NCBI GenBank assembly: GCA_017464765.1
Contig: JAFTYK010000027.1
Span: forward strand, 1 to 48,754
Direction: 5' to 3'
DNA: 48,754 nt
DNA from: Ruminococcus sp.
Lineage (GTDB): Bacteria > Bacillota > Clostridia > Oscillospirales > Acutalibacteraceae
Below the pieces are notes generated by a model that saw only the letters and a program-made list of their open reading frames with translations, ran no database searches and was not told the DNA's origin. Every line of letters begins with the position of its first letter. The stretch's first letter is position 1. This document shows positions 11,280 to 15,741 of the stretch, piece after piece. Position numbers and translations under genes: made by a program.

Positions 11280-11533
11280 CAATTTATTAAGTATGCATAT
11301 ATTATAGTGAGTTTATGCATAAATGTCAATAGAATTTATCATATTTATTCAAATTATCCTTGTTTTCACAGCTACACACCTTCAATATAGTCATTTTAAC
11401 AAATTTATGCTGCATTTTCTTTCATAATATGCATTTTTTCTGCATAATCCCACCTATCTCCCATATCCAAGTATGCAAAATACACAAGTCTTTTACATCT
11501 TTATAGGTAATATATACACTTGATTTATGCATA
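11264..11533. repeat. Cluster of TATGCATA-type motifs between argG and the hyd operon
   Basis: Full TATGCATA palindromes occur at 11292-11299, 11314-11321 and 11526-11533. TGCATA/TATGCA half or near copies occur at 11264-11277 (pair), 11406-11415, 11428-11434, 11441-11446 and 11472-11477. Three of them lie in or next to the -35/-10 region of the two divergent promoters. This suggests binding sites for one regulator, perhaps ArgR. Confidence 0.6.
11301..11329 (-). promoter_or_regulatory. Consensus sigma-A promoter of argG
   Basis: On the minus strand TTGACA (complement of 11324-11329) is separated by exactly 17 bases from TATAAT (complement of 11301-11306). The spacer contains TATGCATA (11314-11321), and another TATGCATA (11292-11299) follows the -10. 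Confidence 0.85.
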
Positions 11534-11548
11534 GTTTTCATGTATAAT
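11520..11548 (+). promoter_or_regulatory. Sigma-A promoter of the hyd maturation operon
   Basis: TTGATT (11520-11525) is followed after 17 bases by TATAAT (11543-11548). TATGCATA occupies the first eight bases of the spacer. Transcription should begin near 11555, leaving a ~205-base leader before the first gene. Confidence 0.8.
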
Positions 11549-11554
11549 TAGAAT

Positions 11555-11672
11555 ACAGAAAAGTATCTGACACAAAGAGCAATCTGACTGAAAGATACGG
11601 CTATATGCGTTCCTACTGTAAGTAGGTTTACTTTGTTATGCTCGCCGTATCTTTTGATATGGCGTTTTTTAT
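11555..11672 (+). ncRNA. Candidate riboswitch or attenuator leader, first stage, upstream of hyd genes
   Basis: Four segments can pair in mutually exclusive ways: GTATC (11563-11567), GATACGGC (11594-11601), GCCGTATC (11644-11651) and GATATGGC (11656-11663). Pairing of the last two gives a tight terminator stem followed by six Ts (11665-11670). Pairing of the second and third gives an 8-bp closing stem that encloses the hairpin CCTAC (11612-11616)/GTAGG (11622-11626) and would prevent the terminator. Pairing of the first and second would free the terminator again. GAGCA (11577-11581) can also pair with TGCTC (11639-11643) as a pseudoknot. This is the architecture of a transcriptional riboswitch. 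I do not recognise the sequence as a known class. Confidence 0.65.
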
Positions 11673-11690
11673 TGTATTCCCCTCTCAGTT

Positions 11691-11745
11691 GTACACGTGC
11701 GATGGGTAAAGAAAACGCACACACTTTCGATGTGTACGATTTTTT
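11691..11745 (+). promoter_or_regulatory. Second attenuator-like structure just upstream of the TM1266-like gene
   Basis: GTACAC (11691-11696) can pair with GTGTAC (11732-11737), and GTGCG (11697-11701) with CGCAC (11716-11720), forming an extended helix. Alternatively ACACA (11719-11723) pairs with TGTGT (11731-11735). Either helix is followed by six Ts (11740-11745), and the ribosome binding site GGAGG begins four bases later. The element may act on transcription or on translation start. Confidence 0.5.
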
Positions 11746-11759
11746 GTTGGAGGTAAGTT

Positions 11760-12017
11760 ATGAGCAAAAGAGTTGCTGTGATGAGTATCATCGTTGAAAA
11801 CAACGATGCTGTCGAGAAACTGAATTCCGTTTTACATGAGGCTAGCGAATTCATCATCGGAAGAATGGGTATTCCATATCGCGAAAAGGGTGTTTCGGTT
11901 ATCAGCGTTGTAATTGACGCTAAGCAGGATTTCATTTCCGCATTAACAGGTAAGATAGGCAATATTGATGGTGCCACCGTTAAAACTGCCTATTCAAATG
12001 TGCTAAGCGATGAATAA
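11760..12017 (+). CDS. TM1266-family iron-only hydrogenase system putative regulator
   Basis: This 85-residue ACT-like protein opens with KRVAVMSIIVEN and contains the family's HEASEFIIGRMGIPYREKGVSVIS-type core. Small proteins of this family are commonly found next to hydE, hydF and hydG and are thought to regulate hydrogenase or bind a ligand; the exact role is not established. GGAGG lies 6 bases upstream of the ATG. Its last eight bases overlap hydE, so it is translated with the maturases. Confidence 0.85.
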   Translation: MSKRVAVMSIIVENNDAVEKLNSVLHEASEFIIGRMGIPYREKGVSVISVVIDAKQDFISALTGKIGNIDGATVKTAYSNVLSDE

Positions 12018-13062
12018 GTTAATAGATTTAATCGAAAAACTTAATGACACCCATTCGCTTACACTAGACGAATACGAATACCTCATAGATAATCGAAACG
12101 ATGAAGCGACAGAGCTTTTAAAAAATTACGCAACAGAAACTCGCAAGAAGTATTATAAAAACCACGTTTTTGTTCGTGGGCTAATTGAAGTGAGCAATAT
12201 CTGCAAAAACGATTGCTATTACTGTGGTATCAGAAAAAGCAATATTTACTGTGACCGCTACCGCCTTAGTAAAGCTGAGATACTCGGGTGCTGTAAAGAA
12301 GGATACGCTCTAGGCTTTCGCACCTTTGTGCTACAAGGTGGCGAGGACGGTGTGTTTACTGACGAGTGGTTATGCGATTTGATTTCCTCTATCAAGAAAA
12401 ACCACCCCGACTGTGCTGTGACGCTGTCACTCGGTGAACGCTCAAAAGAGAGCTACCAGAAGTTATACGATAGCGGTGCTGACCGTTATCTTCTTAGGCA
12501 CGAAACGGCAGATGAAACACATTACTCAAAGCTTCATCCAAGTAACTTAACACTTGAAAACAGAATCGTGTGTCTTAATAACCTGAAAGAAGTCGGTTTT
12601 CAGGTTGGCTGTGGCTTTATGGTTGGTTCTCCGTACCAGACCACAAGAAACATCGCACAGGATTTGAAATTCATCGAGGATTTTTCTCCAGACATGTGCG
12701 GAGTAGGACCTTTCATTCCTCACAAAGACACTATTTTTAAAGATGAAAAAGCGGGCGATGCTGAACTTTGTTGCTATCTGCTATCCATCATAAGACTTAT
12801 AAAGCCGAACATTCTGCTTCCTGCTACAACAGCCTTAGGAACGGTAGAAAATGACGGACGAGAAAAAGGAATCCTCTCGGGTGCAAACGTTATTATGCCT
12901 AACCTCTCCCCACTTTCTGTCAGAAAAAAATACGCTTTATATGATGGCAAAATCAGCACAGGCGAAGAATCCGCCCAAAGTTTAAATAAACTTAAAAAAT
13001 CAATGAACGCGATAGGATACAAAGTAGTAGAAAATCGCGGTGATATAAATAATAATCTCTAA
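12010..13062 (+). CDS. hydE: [FeFe] hydrogenase H-cluster radical SAM maturase HydE
   Basis: This 350-residue radical SAM enzyme helps build the two-iron part of the H-cluster, acting on the iron synthon made by HydG to provide the dithiomethylamine bridge. The SAM cluster motif is CKNDCYYC, with Cys65, Cys69 and Cys72, close to the N-terminus after a helical lead-in. The later segments LQGGEDG and LRHETAD are typical of HydE. The optional second C-terminal cysteine cluster of some homologues was not seen. It overlaps the upstream regulator by eight bases and is followed by hydG. Confidence 0.95.
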   Translation: MNKLIDLIEKLNDTHSLTLDEYEYLIDNRNDEATELLKNYATETRKKYYKNHVFVRGLIEVSNICKNDCYYCGIRKSNIYCDRYRLSKAEILGCCKEGYALGFRTFVLQGGEDGVFTDEWLCDLISSIKKNHPDCAVTLSLGERSKESYQKLYDSGADRYLLRHETADETHYSKLHPSNLTLENRIVCLNNLKEVGFQVGCGFMVGSPYQTTRNIAQDLKFIEDFSPDMCGVGPFIPHKDTIFKDEKAGDAELCCYLLSIIRLIKPNILLPATTALGTVENDGREKGILSGANVIMPNLSPLSVRKKYALYDGKISTGEESAQSLNKLKKSMNAIGYKVVENRGDINNNL

Positions 13063-13074
13063 GGAGTGACCATA

Positions 13075-14523
13075 ATGGCAATTTACAATCCTAAATCATT
13101 AAAAGCAGAAGAATTCATCAATGATGGTGAAATCTTAGAAACACTGGAATATGCAGAAAAGAACAAAAACAACGTTGAGCTTATCGACCAAATTCTCGAG
13201 AAAGCTCGCCCAAAGAAAACAGCCACAGGTTACACTTGCTCCGGTCTTAACCACAGAGAAGCGTCTGTACTGCTTGCTTGTGATATTCCTGAAAAGATTG
13301 AAGAAATCTACAAAATTGCGGAAGAAATCAAGCTCGCTTTTTACGGCAACCGTATCGTTATTTTTGCTCCGCTTTATCTTTCCAACTACTGTGTTAACGG
13401 CTGTGTGTACTGTCCTTATCACCTTAAAAACAAGCGTATTCCTCGCAAAAAGCTCACACAGGAAGAAGTAAAAGCAGAGGTTATAGCACTTCAGGATATG
13501 GGTCACAAGCGTCTTGCGATTGAATCAGGCGAAGACCCTGTCAACAACCCGATTGAGTACATTTTAGAGTGCATCAAAACTATCTACAGCGTACATCACA
13601 AAAACGGCGACATCAGACGTGTTAACGTAAACATCGCCGCTACTACTGTAGAAAATTACCGCAAACTCAAAGAAGCAGGAATCGGCACATATATTCTCTT
13701 CCAGGAAACATACCACAAGGAAAGCTACTTAAAGCTTCATCCGACAGGCCCTAAGCACGACTACGACTACCACACAGAAGCCATGGACAGAGCGATGCAG
13801 GGCGGTATCGACGACGTAGGTTTAGGCGTTCTTTTCGGTCTTGAGCTTTATAAATACGAGTTTGCAGGACTTATCATGCACGCTGAACACTTAGAGGCTG
13901 TTCACGGTGTTGGTCCTCACACAATTTCAGTTCCTCGTATCAAGAAAGCTGACGACATTGACCCAACCGCTTTTGACAACTCGATTTCTGACGAAATTTT
14001 CGCTAAAATCACAGCTTGTATCCGTCTTGCTGTTCCATACACAGGCATGATTATCTCAACTCGTGAAACTGAAGAAGTTCGTTCAAAGCTACTTCGTCTT
14101 GGTATATCTCAGGTAAGCGGTGGTTCACGTACATCTGTTGGCGGTTACACAGAAGAGATTCGTCCTACAGACACCGAGCAGTTTGACGTTTCAGATCAGC
14201 GTACACTCGACGAGGTTGTAAGATGGCTTATGGAAAACGGTCACATTCCTTCATTCTGTACAGCGTGCTACAGAGAAGGCAGAACAGGTGACCGCTTTAT
14301 GAGTCTGTGCAAGAGCGGACAGATACTAAACTGCTGTCACCCAAATGCTTTGATGACTCTCACAGAATACCTTGAAGACTACGCAAGCGAAGAAACAAAG
14401 AAAGTCGGCTACGATTTAGTAAAGAAAGAATTGCTTAGAATTCCTAAAGACAGAGTAAGAGAAATTGCGCAAGCTAACATAGACGATATTATGAATTCAA
14501 ATCGCAGAGATTTCAGATTCTAA
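13075..14523 (+). CDS. hydG: [FeFe] hydrogenase H-cluster radical SAM maturase HydG (tyrosine lyase)
   Basis: This 482-residue enzyme cleaves tyrosine to CO, cyanide and p-cresol and assembles the Fe(CO)2(CN) unit for the H-cluster. The radical SAM motif is CVNGCVYC with Cys106, Cys110 and Cys113. The C-terminal auxiliary-cluster cysteines are Cys395, Cys398 and Cys412 in CTACYREGRTGDRFMSLC. These C-terminal cysteines separate HydG from the related tyrosine lyase ThiH. A GTG at 13066 is in frame, but the ATG at 13075 has AAGGAG eight bases upstream and was chosen. It lies between hydE and hydF. Confidence 0.96.
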   Translation: MAIYNPKSLKAEEFINDGEILETLEYAEKNKNNVELIDQILEKARPKKTATGYTCSGLNHREASVLLACDIPEKIEEIYKIAEEIKLAFYGNRIVIFAPLYLSNYCVNGCVYCPYHLKNKRIPRKKLTQEEVKAEVIALQDMGHKRLAIESGEDPVNNPIEYILECIKTIYSVHHKNGDIRRVNVNIAATTVENYRKLKEAGIGTYILFQETYHKESYLKLHPTGPKHDYDYHTEAMDRAMQGGIDDVGLGVLFGLELYKYEFAGLIMHAEHLEAVHGVGPHTISVPRIKKADDIDPTAFDNSISDEIFAKITACIRLAVPYTGMIISTRETEEVRSKLLRLGISQVSGGSRTSVGGYTEEIRPTDTEQFDVSDQRTLDEVVRWLMENGHIPSFCTACYREGRTGDRFMSLCKSGQILNCCHPNALMTLTEYLEDYASEETKKVGYDLVKKELLRIPKDRVREIAQANIDDIMNSNRRDFRF

Positions 14524-14541
14524 TTACAAACGGAGGACATT

Positions 14542-15741
14542 ATGAGCCTTAACAATACACCATCGAGCGAGCGACTTCACATCGGCTTTTTCGGGCTAAG
14601 AAACGCAGGTAAATCAAGCGTTGTAAACGCCGTTACTAATCAGGAATTATCCTTAGTTTCCGACGTTTTAGGCACTACCACCGACCCTGTGAAAAAGGCG
14701 ATGGAGCTTCTCCCTTTAGGCCCTGTTGTGATTATTGATACCCCCGGACTTGATGATGAGGGAACTTTGGGCATGATGCGAGTACAAAGAGCAAAGGAAG
14801 TTCTCGCTTACACCGATATAGCTGTTCTCGTTATAGATTCGCAAAAAGAAAAAAGCGAACTCGACAACGAACTAATCGCTACTTTTAAAGAGAGAAAAAT
14901 CCCGTTTATCATAGCGTACAACAAAGCTGACCTAAAAATTGAAAAGCTCGCTCTTTCAAAAAACGAAATCTACGTCAGCGCAAAAACAGGCGAAAATATT
15001 AACAAACTCAAAGAGCTTATCGGAAAGCTCTCAAAAAACGCTAAAGAAAGTAAGCCTATTGTGTCGGATTTAATCGAAGAAAACGACATCGTTGTTCTCG
15101 TTATCCCAATTGACGAATCCGCCCCAAAAGGCAGATTGATTCTTCCACAGCAAATGGTTATGCGAGATATTCTCGACCATCACGCGATGTGTATCTGCAC
15201 ACAGGTAACTGAGCTTAAAGAAACTTTAGCTTCACTATCTAAAAAGCCAAAGCTTGTTATCACTGATTCGCAGGCTTTCGGCGCTGTCGCAAAAATCGTA
15301 CCAGAAGATATTACAATGACATCTTTTTCGATTTTGATGGCTAGATACAAAGGCGATTTAAAAGCACTAATTGAGGGCGCATCGGTACTCTCGAAACTTA
15401 AAGACGGCGACAAAGTACTAATTGCTGAGGGTTGTACTCATCATCGCCAGTGTAACGATATAGGTACCGTAAAAATGCCAAAGTGGATAGAAGATTTTTC
15501 GAAAGTAAAACCGCAGTACACCTTTACTTCAGGTGGAACATTTCCCGAGGATTTATCCGATTTTAAGCTCATCGTTCATTGTGGCGGTTGTATGCTAAAC
15601 GAAAAGGAAATGAAGCGAAGAATGGAAAGCTCAAATGCTCAGTCAGTTCCTATCGTGAACTACGGAGTTGCTATCGCTCACATGCACTCTATCTTAAAAC
15701 GCTCATTAGCGCCATTCCCCGACATTTTAAAACTCCTTTAA
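14542..15741 (+). CDS. hydF: [FeFe] hydrogenase H-cluster maturation GTPase HydF
   Basis: This 399-residue scaffold protein carries the two-iron precursor to apo-hydrogenase. The N-terminal GTPase domain has the P-loop GLRNAGKSS (residues 18-26), DTPGLDDEG in switch II and NKAD for guanine. The C-terminal iron-sulfur domain has CTHH and, about fifty residues later, HCGGC, the CxH...HCxxC set that binds its cluster. CGGAGGA precedes the start. It ends the operon and is followed by a clear terminator. The hydrogenase structural gene hydA is not in the window. Confidence 0.96.
   Translation: MSLNNTPSSERLHIGFFGLRNAGKSSVVNAVTNQELSLVSDVLGTTTDPVKKAMELLPLGPVVIIDTPGLDDEGTLGMMRVQRAKEVLAYTDIAVLVIDSQKEKSELDNELIATFKERKIPFIIAYNKADLKIEKLALSKNEIYVSAKTGENINKLKELIGKLSKNAKESKPIVSDLIEENDIVVLVIPIDESAPKGRLILPQQMVMRDILDHHAMCICTQVTELKETLASLSKKPKLVITDSQAFGAVAKIVPEDITMTSFSILMARYKGDLKALIEGASVLSKLKDGDKVLIAEGCTHHRQCNDIGTVKMPKWIEDFSKVKPQYTFTSGGTFPEDLSDFKLIVHCGGCMLNEKEMKRRMESSNAQSVPIVNYGVAIAHMHSILKRSLAPFPDILKLL

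What the first reader, a model, noticed from the sequence alone, without database searches (positions are those of the whole stretch)
11555..11745. Two-stage riboswitch- or attenuator-like leader upstream of the [FeFe]-hydrogenase maturation operon
The ~205-base leader contains two terminator-like hairpins, each with competing pairings. In the first, GATACGGC/GCCGTATC (8 bp, enclosing a CCTAC/GTAGG hairpin) excludes the terminator GCCGTATC/GATATGGC plus T6. An upstream GTATC can in turn capture GATAC, and GAGCA/TGCTC allows a pseudoknot. The second ends in T6 just before the ribosome site. Such exact switching segments are hard to get by chance. I know of no described RNA class controlling hydE/G/F, but my recall is not a database search.
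Basis: partly seen in the sequence, partly recalled or inferred. Interest (0 to 1): 0.82.

Follow-up and report, generated by a model that had tools for sequence, protein, structure and literature searches.

The report
Leader RNA switch for hydrogenase assembly genes
The stretch before these hydrogenase-assembly genes encodes a conserved folded RNA, apparently undescribed, that can switch transcription off early and recurs before the same genes in many anaerobic bacteria, usually together with one small protein that may be its partner.

Summary
Window 11563-11670 holds a compact RNA, CUGA-P2-AAAG-P3-loop-P3'-CUGA-P2'-AAAG, whose closing helix P1 competes with an antiterminator that competes with a terminator. 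It recurs in nine congeners and across the order, mostly just before TM1266 (98 of 125 sense-strand hits). Helices covary. Terminators follow 81 of 85 order-wide leaders, against 17.6% of shuffles, and the P1 strand is complementary to its own terminator. No Rfam family matches; I found no description in the papers I could search. The second hairpin (about 11675-11748) is an inserted dispersed repeat. The RNA also precedes hydG or hydE alone, and TM1266 with ABC-transporter genes. Near hyd genes it was found in 78 of 110 hydG+TM1266+ and 0 of 7 hydG+TM1266- genomes (not corrected for phylogeny). Best reading: an OFF-type attenuator whose formed core causes termination, or blocks ribosome access at hydG. 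The effector is unknown; the TM1266 protein is my leading candidate (about 0.45), then a small metabolite or metal (about 0.4).

The parts
11520..11548 (+). Promoter, TTGATT-17-TATAAT; start of the transcript near 11555 is inferred
   Evidence: 10 of 12 matches; similar TATAAT stretches upstream of the core in the congeners' leaders (read)
11563..11568 (+). P1 5' strand GUAUCU (anti-antiterminator)
   Evidence: covariation
11569..11592 (+). Conserved core: GA - P2 CAC (11571-11573) - AA - P3 AGA (11576-11578) - loop GCAA - P3' UCU (11583-11585) - GA - P2' CUG (11588-11590) - AA
11593..11601 (+). P1 3' strand AGAUAC plus GGC; the same stretch is the 5' strand of the antiterminator
11612..11626 (+). 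Intervening hairpin CCUAC/GUAGG between the antiterminator strands; a hairpin of variable sequence can be read here in several congeners
11643..11670 (+). Intrinsic terminator with U6; its 5' strand (11643-11651) is the antiterminator partner
   Evidence: relatives' terminators
11675..11748 (+). Boundaries approximate
11749..11753 (+). Ribosome-binding site GGAGG of the TM1266 gene
11760..12017 (+). TM1266 family protein (TIGR03959/PF21699), candidate effector
12010..13062 (+). hydE
13066..14523 (+). hydG
14542..15741 (+). hydF

Best explanation
It is a cis-acting OFF attenuator. Shown by sequence comparison: P1, the antiterminator (AGAUACGGC with GCCGUAUCU) and the terminator (GCCGUAUC with GAUAUGGC plus U6) share strands and exclude each other, and this arrangement is conserved. 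Inferred: without effector, the antiterminator displaces P1 as it is transcribed and RNA polymerase reads into TM1266-hydEGF. With effector bound to the P2/P3 core, P1 is locked, the antiterminator cannot form and transcription ends. Where the element abuts the hydG start codon, the P1 3' strand lies at the ribosome-binding site, so the same lock should block translation. The effector is most likely the TM1266 protein, possibly with a bound metal or cofactor, giving feedback control of H-cluster maturation genes. My probabilities: conserved switching RNA 0.95; core formed = OFF 0.8; TM1266 as effector 0.45. The confidence below is for the whole chain.
For: Family: R1 in 43 of 398 family genomes; of the 30 hits fetched (of 48 listed; window included) 28 lie within about 210 nt before TM1266-hydE. 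R2 in 24 of 295 order genomes; 20 of the 25 hits, all fetched, precede TM1266 or hydE. Covariation; a test with candidates chosen by sequence alone gives P2 pairing 0.716 against 0.519 +- 0.025 (maximum of 2000 shuffles 0.602). Terminators: 81 of 85 against 17.6%. P1 3' strand with own terminator 5' strand: mean -9.9 kcal/mol, against -4.9 shuffled and -7.05 swapped between leaders. Stepwise folding of the window leader goes from P1 to antiterminator to terminator. TM1266 link: RNA in 78 of 110 hydG+TM1266+ and 0 of 7 hydG+TM1266- genomes; 11 named genomes with hydE and no TM1266 showed no hit beside hyd genes, while the 4 genomes of that set with TM1266 elsewhere all had one. The RNA stays with hydE in G785, G822, G823, G592 where TM1266 is elsewhere, and stands before TM1266 with ABC-transporter genes. 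The element is pseudo-twofold symmetric, and the T. maritima TM1266 crystal (2NZC) forms a tetramer (PMC12626770, passages). R4, N22, H26, G34, R35, G37, P39, G64, K65 are among the invariant residues of 20 aligned TM1266 proteins.
Against: No binding or termination experiment exists. 32 of 110 hydG+TM1266+ genomes and 15 of 26 TM1266 genomes without a tabulated hydG gave no hit at E 0.1. TM1266 and the RNA are usually in one operon, so co-occurrence is partly linkage; the test is not corrected for phylogeny, 3 of the 7 negatives have a distant HydG (under 622 bits), and one negative locus (L278) is cut short by its contig end. Two genomes without TM1266, G667 and G702, had R2 hits (E 0.005 and 0.096); I judged them chance because one is a short hairpin away from hyd genes and the other lies inside a coding sequence. 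P1's three outer pairs fail in 13, 13 and 17 of 38 sequences. The direction (bound = OFF) is inferred. In at least 6 of the 30 phylum loci TM1266 seems to follow directly on a coding stretch with no such leader (my reading).
Confidence: 0.5

Rival explanations
1. A metabolite- or ion-binding riboswitch: the symmetric core binds a small ligand directly (an iron species, a maturation intermediate, or another compound common to hydrogenase assembly and the associated importers), with the same P1/antiterminator/terminator logic. TM1266 would then be just another gene of the regulon.
For: Compact conserved core with terminators and a probable translational platform. It precedes biosynthetic genes and importers, including a FecCD-type permease (PF01032) whose best NCBIfam matches, all below cut-off, are B12, F420-0 and iron-chelate permeases, as known riboswitch regulons do.
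Against: 13 invariant bases in A3, few for an aptamer. Not found beside hydG in any of the 7 TM1266-lacking hydG loci nor beside the hyd genes of the 11 named genomes without TM1266.
Confidence: 0.38
2. Another trans-acting protein or small RNA, not TM1266, is the effector.
For: The pseudo-twofold symmetric, purine-rich internal loops resemble protein sites in general (the likeness is my judgement).
Against: None specific: only TM1266 and HydG were scanned across the order, so other co-occurring genes were not looked for.
Confidence: 0.1
3. Ribosome-mediated attenuation by a leader peptide (an ATG-initiated Met-Arg-Ser-Tyr-Cys-Lys frame lies within the leader).
For: The short open frame exists in the window.
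Against: An ATG-started short frame at that place can be read in only 2 of the 10 congeneric leaders (window and L005), with different residues, and the window's has no clear ribosome site (read by eye).
Confidence: 0.01
4. Ordinary constitutive terminator and chance complementarity.
For: Terminators between genes are common.
Against: Conserved core, covariation and own-partner complementarity; 125 of 127 model hits on the gene strand.
Confidence: 0.01

Closest known systems
Transcription-terminating OFF riboswitches (general type; from general knowledge)
   Same: Closing helix P1 shares a strand with an antiterminator, which shares a strand with an intrinsic terminator
   Different: The core matches no Rfam family and the effector is unknown
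Protein-responsive attenuators such as PyrR leaders and LicT/BglG RAT sites (recalled)
   Same: A short hairpin with conserved internal loops overlapping a terminator switch; regulator gene commonly in the regulated operon
   Different: Recalled RAT binding favours read-through, whereas here the formed core favours termination; no Rfam family matched and TM1266 matches only its own family
TM1266 family putative hydrogenase-system regulator (TIGR03959/PF21699; PDB 2NZC)
   Same: The gene directly downstream of the RNA in this window; annotated only as a putative regulator
   Different: No RNA partner was described in the family records or the passages I saw nor in the search listings
T-box leaders
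   Same: Clostridial leaders with antiterminator/terminator choice (general knowledge)
   Different: No T-box match at Rfam's gathering score in the window or in the lax scan of the leader

Membership tests
Riboswitch (small-molecule aptamer plus expression platform) | Conserved structured core with covariation | tested here: met
Riboswitch (small-molecule aptamer plus expression platform) | Mutually exclusive expression platform | tested here: met
Riboswitch (small-molecule aptamer plus expression platform) | Direct ligand binding without protein | not testable with these tools
   needs probing or binding experiments
Any Rfam 15 family | Match at the gathering score | tested here: not met
   0 matches in the window and in 20 diverse relatives' loci; the lax scan of the leader gave 4 matches, all far below their gathering scores
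T-box leader | Match to a T-box covariance model (that Rfam holds one is recalled) | tested here: not met
Leader-peptide attenuator | Conserved short reading frame with regulatory codons | tested here: not met
   frame at that place in 2 of 10 congeneric leaders, read by eye
Protein-dependent attenuator with TM1266 as binder | RNA present only with the protein | tested here: inconclusive
   0 of 7 TM1266-lacking against 78 of 110 TM1266-bearing hydG genomes and no hit beside hyd genes in 11 named genomes; two R2 hits in TM1266-lacking genomes G667 and G702 judged chance; linkage and phylogeny not removed
Protein-dependent attenuator with TM1266 as binder | Protein binds the RNA | not testable with these tools
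   needs a binding assay

The most novel reading that the evidence does not exclude
TM1266-family proteins are a new kind of RNA-binding regulator. Each acts on a pseudo-twofold symmetric leader RNA, together forming a portable module that reads an H-cluster- or iron-related signal and shuts off [FeFe]-hydrogenase maturation genes (by termination at the operon front, by translation at hydG) and, in other genomes, certain ABC importers.
Probability: 0.4. Interest if true: 0.88.

Novelty: new variant of a known kind. Interest (0 to 1): 0.8.

Why it matters
[FeFe] hydrogenases are major sources of hydrogen in anaerobic gut and rumen communities (general knowledge), and I found no description of how cells set the supply of their three maturases. 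This gives a specific, widespread RNA with a predicted mechanism, a predicted partner for an annotated but uncharacterised protein family, and a regulon that also points at two importer types of unknown substrate. It makes the question of what the H-cluster assembly line senses directly testable with short RNAs and one 85-residue protein.

Tried and rejected
Rejected: GAGCA/TGCTC pseudoknot (GAGCA in 1 of 10 congeneric leaders); leader peptide; second hairpin as a second switch (dispersed repeat: 6 other copies in 3 congeneric genomes, empty site in G026); T-box or other Rfam class. Hits set aside as chance: L090, L189, L192, L195, L196 and the R2 hits in the 11 genomes without TM1266. L076 and L194 are unexplained (RNA-like, but the next assigned gene is 1.2 kb away or off the contig). 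18 of the 48 family hits were not fetched as loci; one of these, in G468, was seen inside L067.

Led nowhere: the first MAFFT alignment of leaders mixed strands and was replaced. A first P2 pairing test cut the strands one base wrong and gave no signal (0.321 against 0.296 +- 0.027); I corrected the offset to the alignment convention and repeated it; both are reported. R2 was built with P1 and P3 only; P2 was recognised afterwards on the divergent set A5, whose members I picked by eye from TM1266 leaders by their CUGA/GAAAG motifs, so one search is the less biased test of P2. Papers: the searches listed no description (listings and abstract starts seen); of the main texts of PMC8632094, PMC11109978, PMC2864571 and PMC8040213 I saw only term searches. 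Supplements were not available. The 2017 collection of 224 candidate RNAs (recalled) was not held under the id I tried, so it remains unchecked. A structure prediction of TM1266 was not run.

Full report
WHAT WAS CHECKED. The window genome (G000, 1.5 Mb in 48 contigs, 67% complete) gave one copy of the element. The leader lies between a promoter at 11520-11548 and TM1266 at 11760; TM1266-hydE-hydG-hydF are confirmed by NCBIfam. The fold of 11555-11672 is more stable than 199 of 200 shuffles, but single-sequence folding would not settle the matter: 11555-11650 alone is ordinary (77 of 200 shuffles fold as well).

CONSERVATION IN THE GENUS. A DNA search of 161 genomes of the genus (own included) found the leader or its core in nine other species. 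The ten share GUAUC/GUGUC-UGACAYAA-AGA-loop-UCU-GASUGAAA-GAUAC/GAUGC-GGC. The switch strands tend to change together: of the four leaders with GATGCGGC in the P1 strand, three (L006, L008, L009) carry GCCGTGTC in the terminator; L005 keeps GCCGTATC, and L003 has GATACGGC with GCCGTGTC, pairs that G-U wobbles still allow. L054, in another genus, has GGTGCGGT with ACTGCACC.

A FAMILY ACROSS THE ORDER. Covariance model R1 (11 sequences) hit 43 of 398 genomes of the family at E 0.1, 48 matches. Of 30 fetched, 28 (window included) lie within about 210 nt before TM1266-hydE; the exceptions are L076 and L090. R2 (38 sequences) hit 24 of 295 genomes of the order at E 0.1. Of its 25 matches, all fetched, 20 precede TM1266 or hydE (in L190 hydE starts 394 nt downstream); the other five are two other intergenic matches (L189, L192), two inside coding sequence (L195, L196) and one at a contig end (L194). 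Reading TM1266 leaders that R1 and R2 missed suggested a broader group, from which A5 (32 sequences, chosen by eye) and model R3 were made. With R2 or R3 at E up to 1, 56 of 80 named hydE loci carry a sense-strand hit; 16 of these loci were in R3's training set and some others are species already used for R1 or R2. Outside the order, R3 hit 8 of 30 TM1266 loci of the phylum at E 0.15 or better (two more matches at E 0.5-0.6). Two coriobacterial loci, L133 and L170, look by eye like members with the ribosome site in the P1 3' strand, but neither model hit them, so I do not count them.

STRUCTURE. The element is 5' CUGA-P2-AAAG-P3-loop-P3'-CUGA-P2'-AAAG 3', closed by P1: two copies of CUGA...AAAG facing each other, so nearly twofold symmetric. 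On A3 (38 sequences), P1 and P3 show 34 double-sided change cells against 9.1 in shuffles; the three inner P1 pairs hold in at least 37 of 38, the three outer ones fail in 13, 13 and 17. Adding P2 gives 85.1% paired; P2 there is almost invariant and its third pair is often a mismatch (17 of 38), including the C-C of the window. On A5 all seven P2/P3 pairs show double-sided changes; whole structure 66 cells against 21.3, score 0.545 against 0.208, slid controls at most 0.205. Because A5 was picked by eye, I repeated the test with candidates chosen by sequence only: 64 of 140 TM1266 upstream regions gave a candidate, against 1 of 140 reversed and 0 of 140 reverse-complemented. P2 pairing among 62 distinct cores was 0.716 (23 fully paired) against 0.519 +- 0.025, with none of 2000 shuffles reaching it. 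An earlier version of this test, cut one base wrong, gave no signal.

SWITCH. A terminator hairpin of at most -8 kcal/mol with a U tract follows 81 of 85 order-wide leaders (hits at E 0.1 within 200 nt of TM1266 or hydE), against 17.6% of dinucleotide shuffles of the same stretches. Over 120 leaders (those 85 plus 35 from the genus and family sets; G226 and G284 enter twice and G576 has two hits) a looser detector finds one in 118. The P1 3' strand pairs with its own terminator 5' strand at -9.9 kcal/mol on average, against -4.9 for shuffled strands and -7.05 for strands swapped between leaders; own is better than the swapped mean in 100 of 118, and reaches -7 in 85 of 118 against 45% of swapped pairs. 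For the window leader the detector chose the inserted second hairpin, so its row in that table is not the relevant one; for the true partners the duplexes are -15.0 (antiterminator), -14.5 (terminator) and -4.5 kcal/mol (P1), and the forced P1 and antiterminator states differ by 2.2 kcal/mol. Folding growing transcripts gives P1 at 11602, antiterminator at 11651-11660, terminator plus P1 at 11672. That sequence is what a kinetic switch needs: locking P1 early gives termination, leaving it free gives read-through. The direction is inferred, not shown.

GENES CONTROLLED. HydG was found in 119 and TM1266 in 136 of 295 order genomes. I fetched 160 loci around them. R2 and R3 gave 127 distinct hits at E up to 1; 125 are on the gene strand. 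The next gene is TM1266 for 98, hydE for 5 and hydG for 13 (11 of them ending within 8 bases of the start codon), and 9 have no assigned gene, of which 8 lie by their coordinates at the same place just before hydG. Nine genomes have hits at E 0.1 assigned to two genes. Some surveyed genomes (for example G210, G286, G592) also supplied training sequences. In Catonella morbi (E 0.019) and in G832 and G837 the element stands before hydG, behind hydE or TM1266, and G468 has a second copy between hydE and hydG. In L122 and L204 the P1 3' strand runs into the hydG ribosome site, which suggests translational control; L206 instead has a terminator before hydG. In genomes without a detected hydG, the RNA plus TM1266 stand before FecCD-type permease and ATPase genes (L341, L344, L355, L359, L360) or before a substrate-binding protein and, where read, a permease (L350, L353, L361, L365, L366, L369, L371). 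Representatives match PF01032 (FecCD) and PF09084 (NMT1) above cut-off; the SsuA match TIGR01728 is below its cut-off. Hits in L350, L366 and L369 are weak (E 0.43-0.95).

TM1266 LINK. Among order genomes with hydG, RNA hits at E 0.1 occur in 78 of 110 with TM1266 and 0 of 7 without (Fisher p 3e-4). Two genomes whose hydG starts at a contig edge are not in that comparison: G740 was not fetched and G772 was counted only through its TM1266 locus. One of the 7 loci (L278) is short. The test ignores phylogeny. In a second set, of 15 named hydE loci lacking an adjacent TM1266, 11 genomes have no TM1266 at all; their hydE loci have no sense-strand hit and their genome-wide R2 hits are not near hyd genes as far as read (R3 was not run genome-wide). 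The other 4 have TM1266 elsewhere and all 4 have the RNA (G828 before hydE, G832 and G837 before hydG, G833 before TM1266). Against this, R2 hits occur in two TM1266-lacking genomes, G667 (E 0.005) and G702 (E 0.096); one is a short hairpin away from hyd genes and the other inside a coding sequence, and I treat both as chance. In G785, G822, G823 and G592 the RNA stays before hydE while TM1266 is elsewhere; in G592 a second element (a training sequence of R3) precedes TM1266 and an importer gene. So the RNA is not simply a TM1266 autoregulatory site, but it appears with the protein. TM1266 matches only PF21699 and TIGR03959 above cut-off; its only strong solved relative by sequence is 2NZC, described as a tetramer in PMC12626770 (passages seen). 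PMC9679718 calls a homologue a transcription factor by similarity (passage seen). Conserved R4, R35, K65 and K75 with N22 and H26 would suit a nucleic-acid or anion site; that is inference.

SECOND HAIRPIN. Window 11690-11759 matches six other copies in three congeneric genomes (G026, G124 four times, G061), 79-82% identical; five show no reading frame of 60 codons over them, the G061 copy overlaps one. The leader of G026, 87% identical up to the terminator, passes directly from the U tract to the ribosome site.

NOVELTY. No Rfam match in the window or in 20 diverse loci. The literature searches listed in Tried and rejected found no description, but one large collection was not held and supplements could not be read. 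I therefore call it apparently undescribed.

Noticed in passing
window 11675-11748: A dispersed repeat (about 75-100 nt, hairpin with a GCGATGG.TRAAGAAAACGCAC-like core) inserted in this leader; six other copies seen in three congeneric genomes. Possibly a small mobile or structured-RNA element.
   Followed up: partly
window 11280-11540: Many TATGCATA/TGCATA palindromes between the divergent argG promoter and the hyd promoter, one inside the hyd promoter spacer and visible in the congeners' leaders; recalled ARG boxes look similar, so an arginine repressor might also touch the hyd promoter.
   Followed up: no
L341, L344, L355, L359, L360: TM1266 plus a FecCD permease and ATPase, preceded by the same RNA, in genomes without detected hydG: an importer of unknown substrate.
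   Followed up: partly
L350, L353, L361, L365, L366, L367, L369, L371: TM1266 followed by an NMT1-like substrate-binding protein (families scanned for L365 and L366 only), with the RNA in front, weakly in L350, L366 and L369: substrate unknown.
   Followed up: partly
L122 5035-5081; L204 1444-1492: A copy of the element directly before hydG, with the P1 3' strand at the ribosome-binding site.
   Followed up: partly
L133 3681-3733, L170 138-186: Coriobacterial TM1266 leaders that look like the element with the ribosome site in P1, although neither model hits them.
   Followed up: no
L076 1501-1552: A convincing core followed by a hairpin carrying a possible ribosome site, 1.2 kb before TM1266, with another reading frame between.
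   Followed up: no
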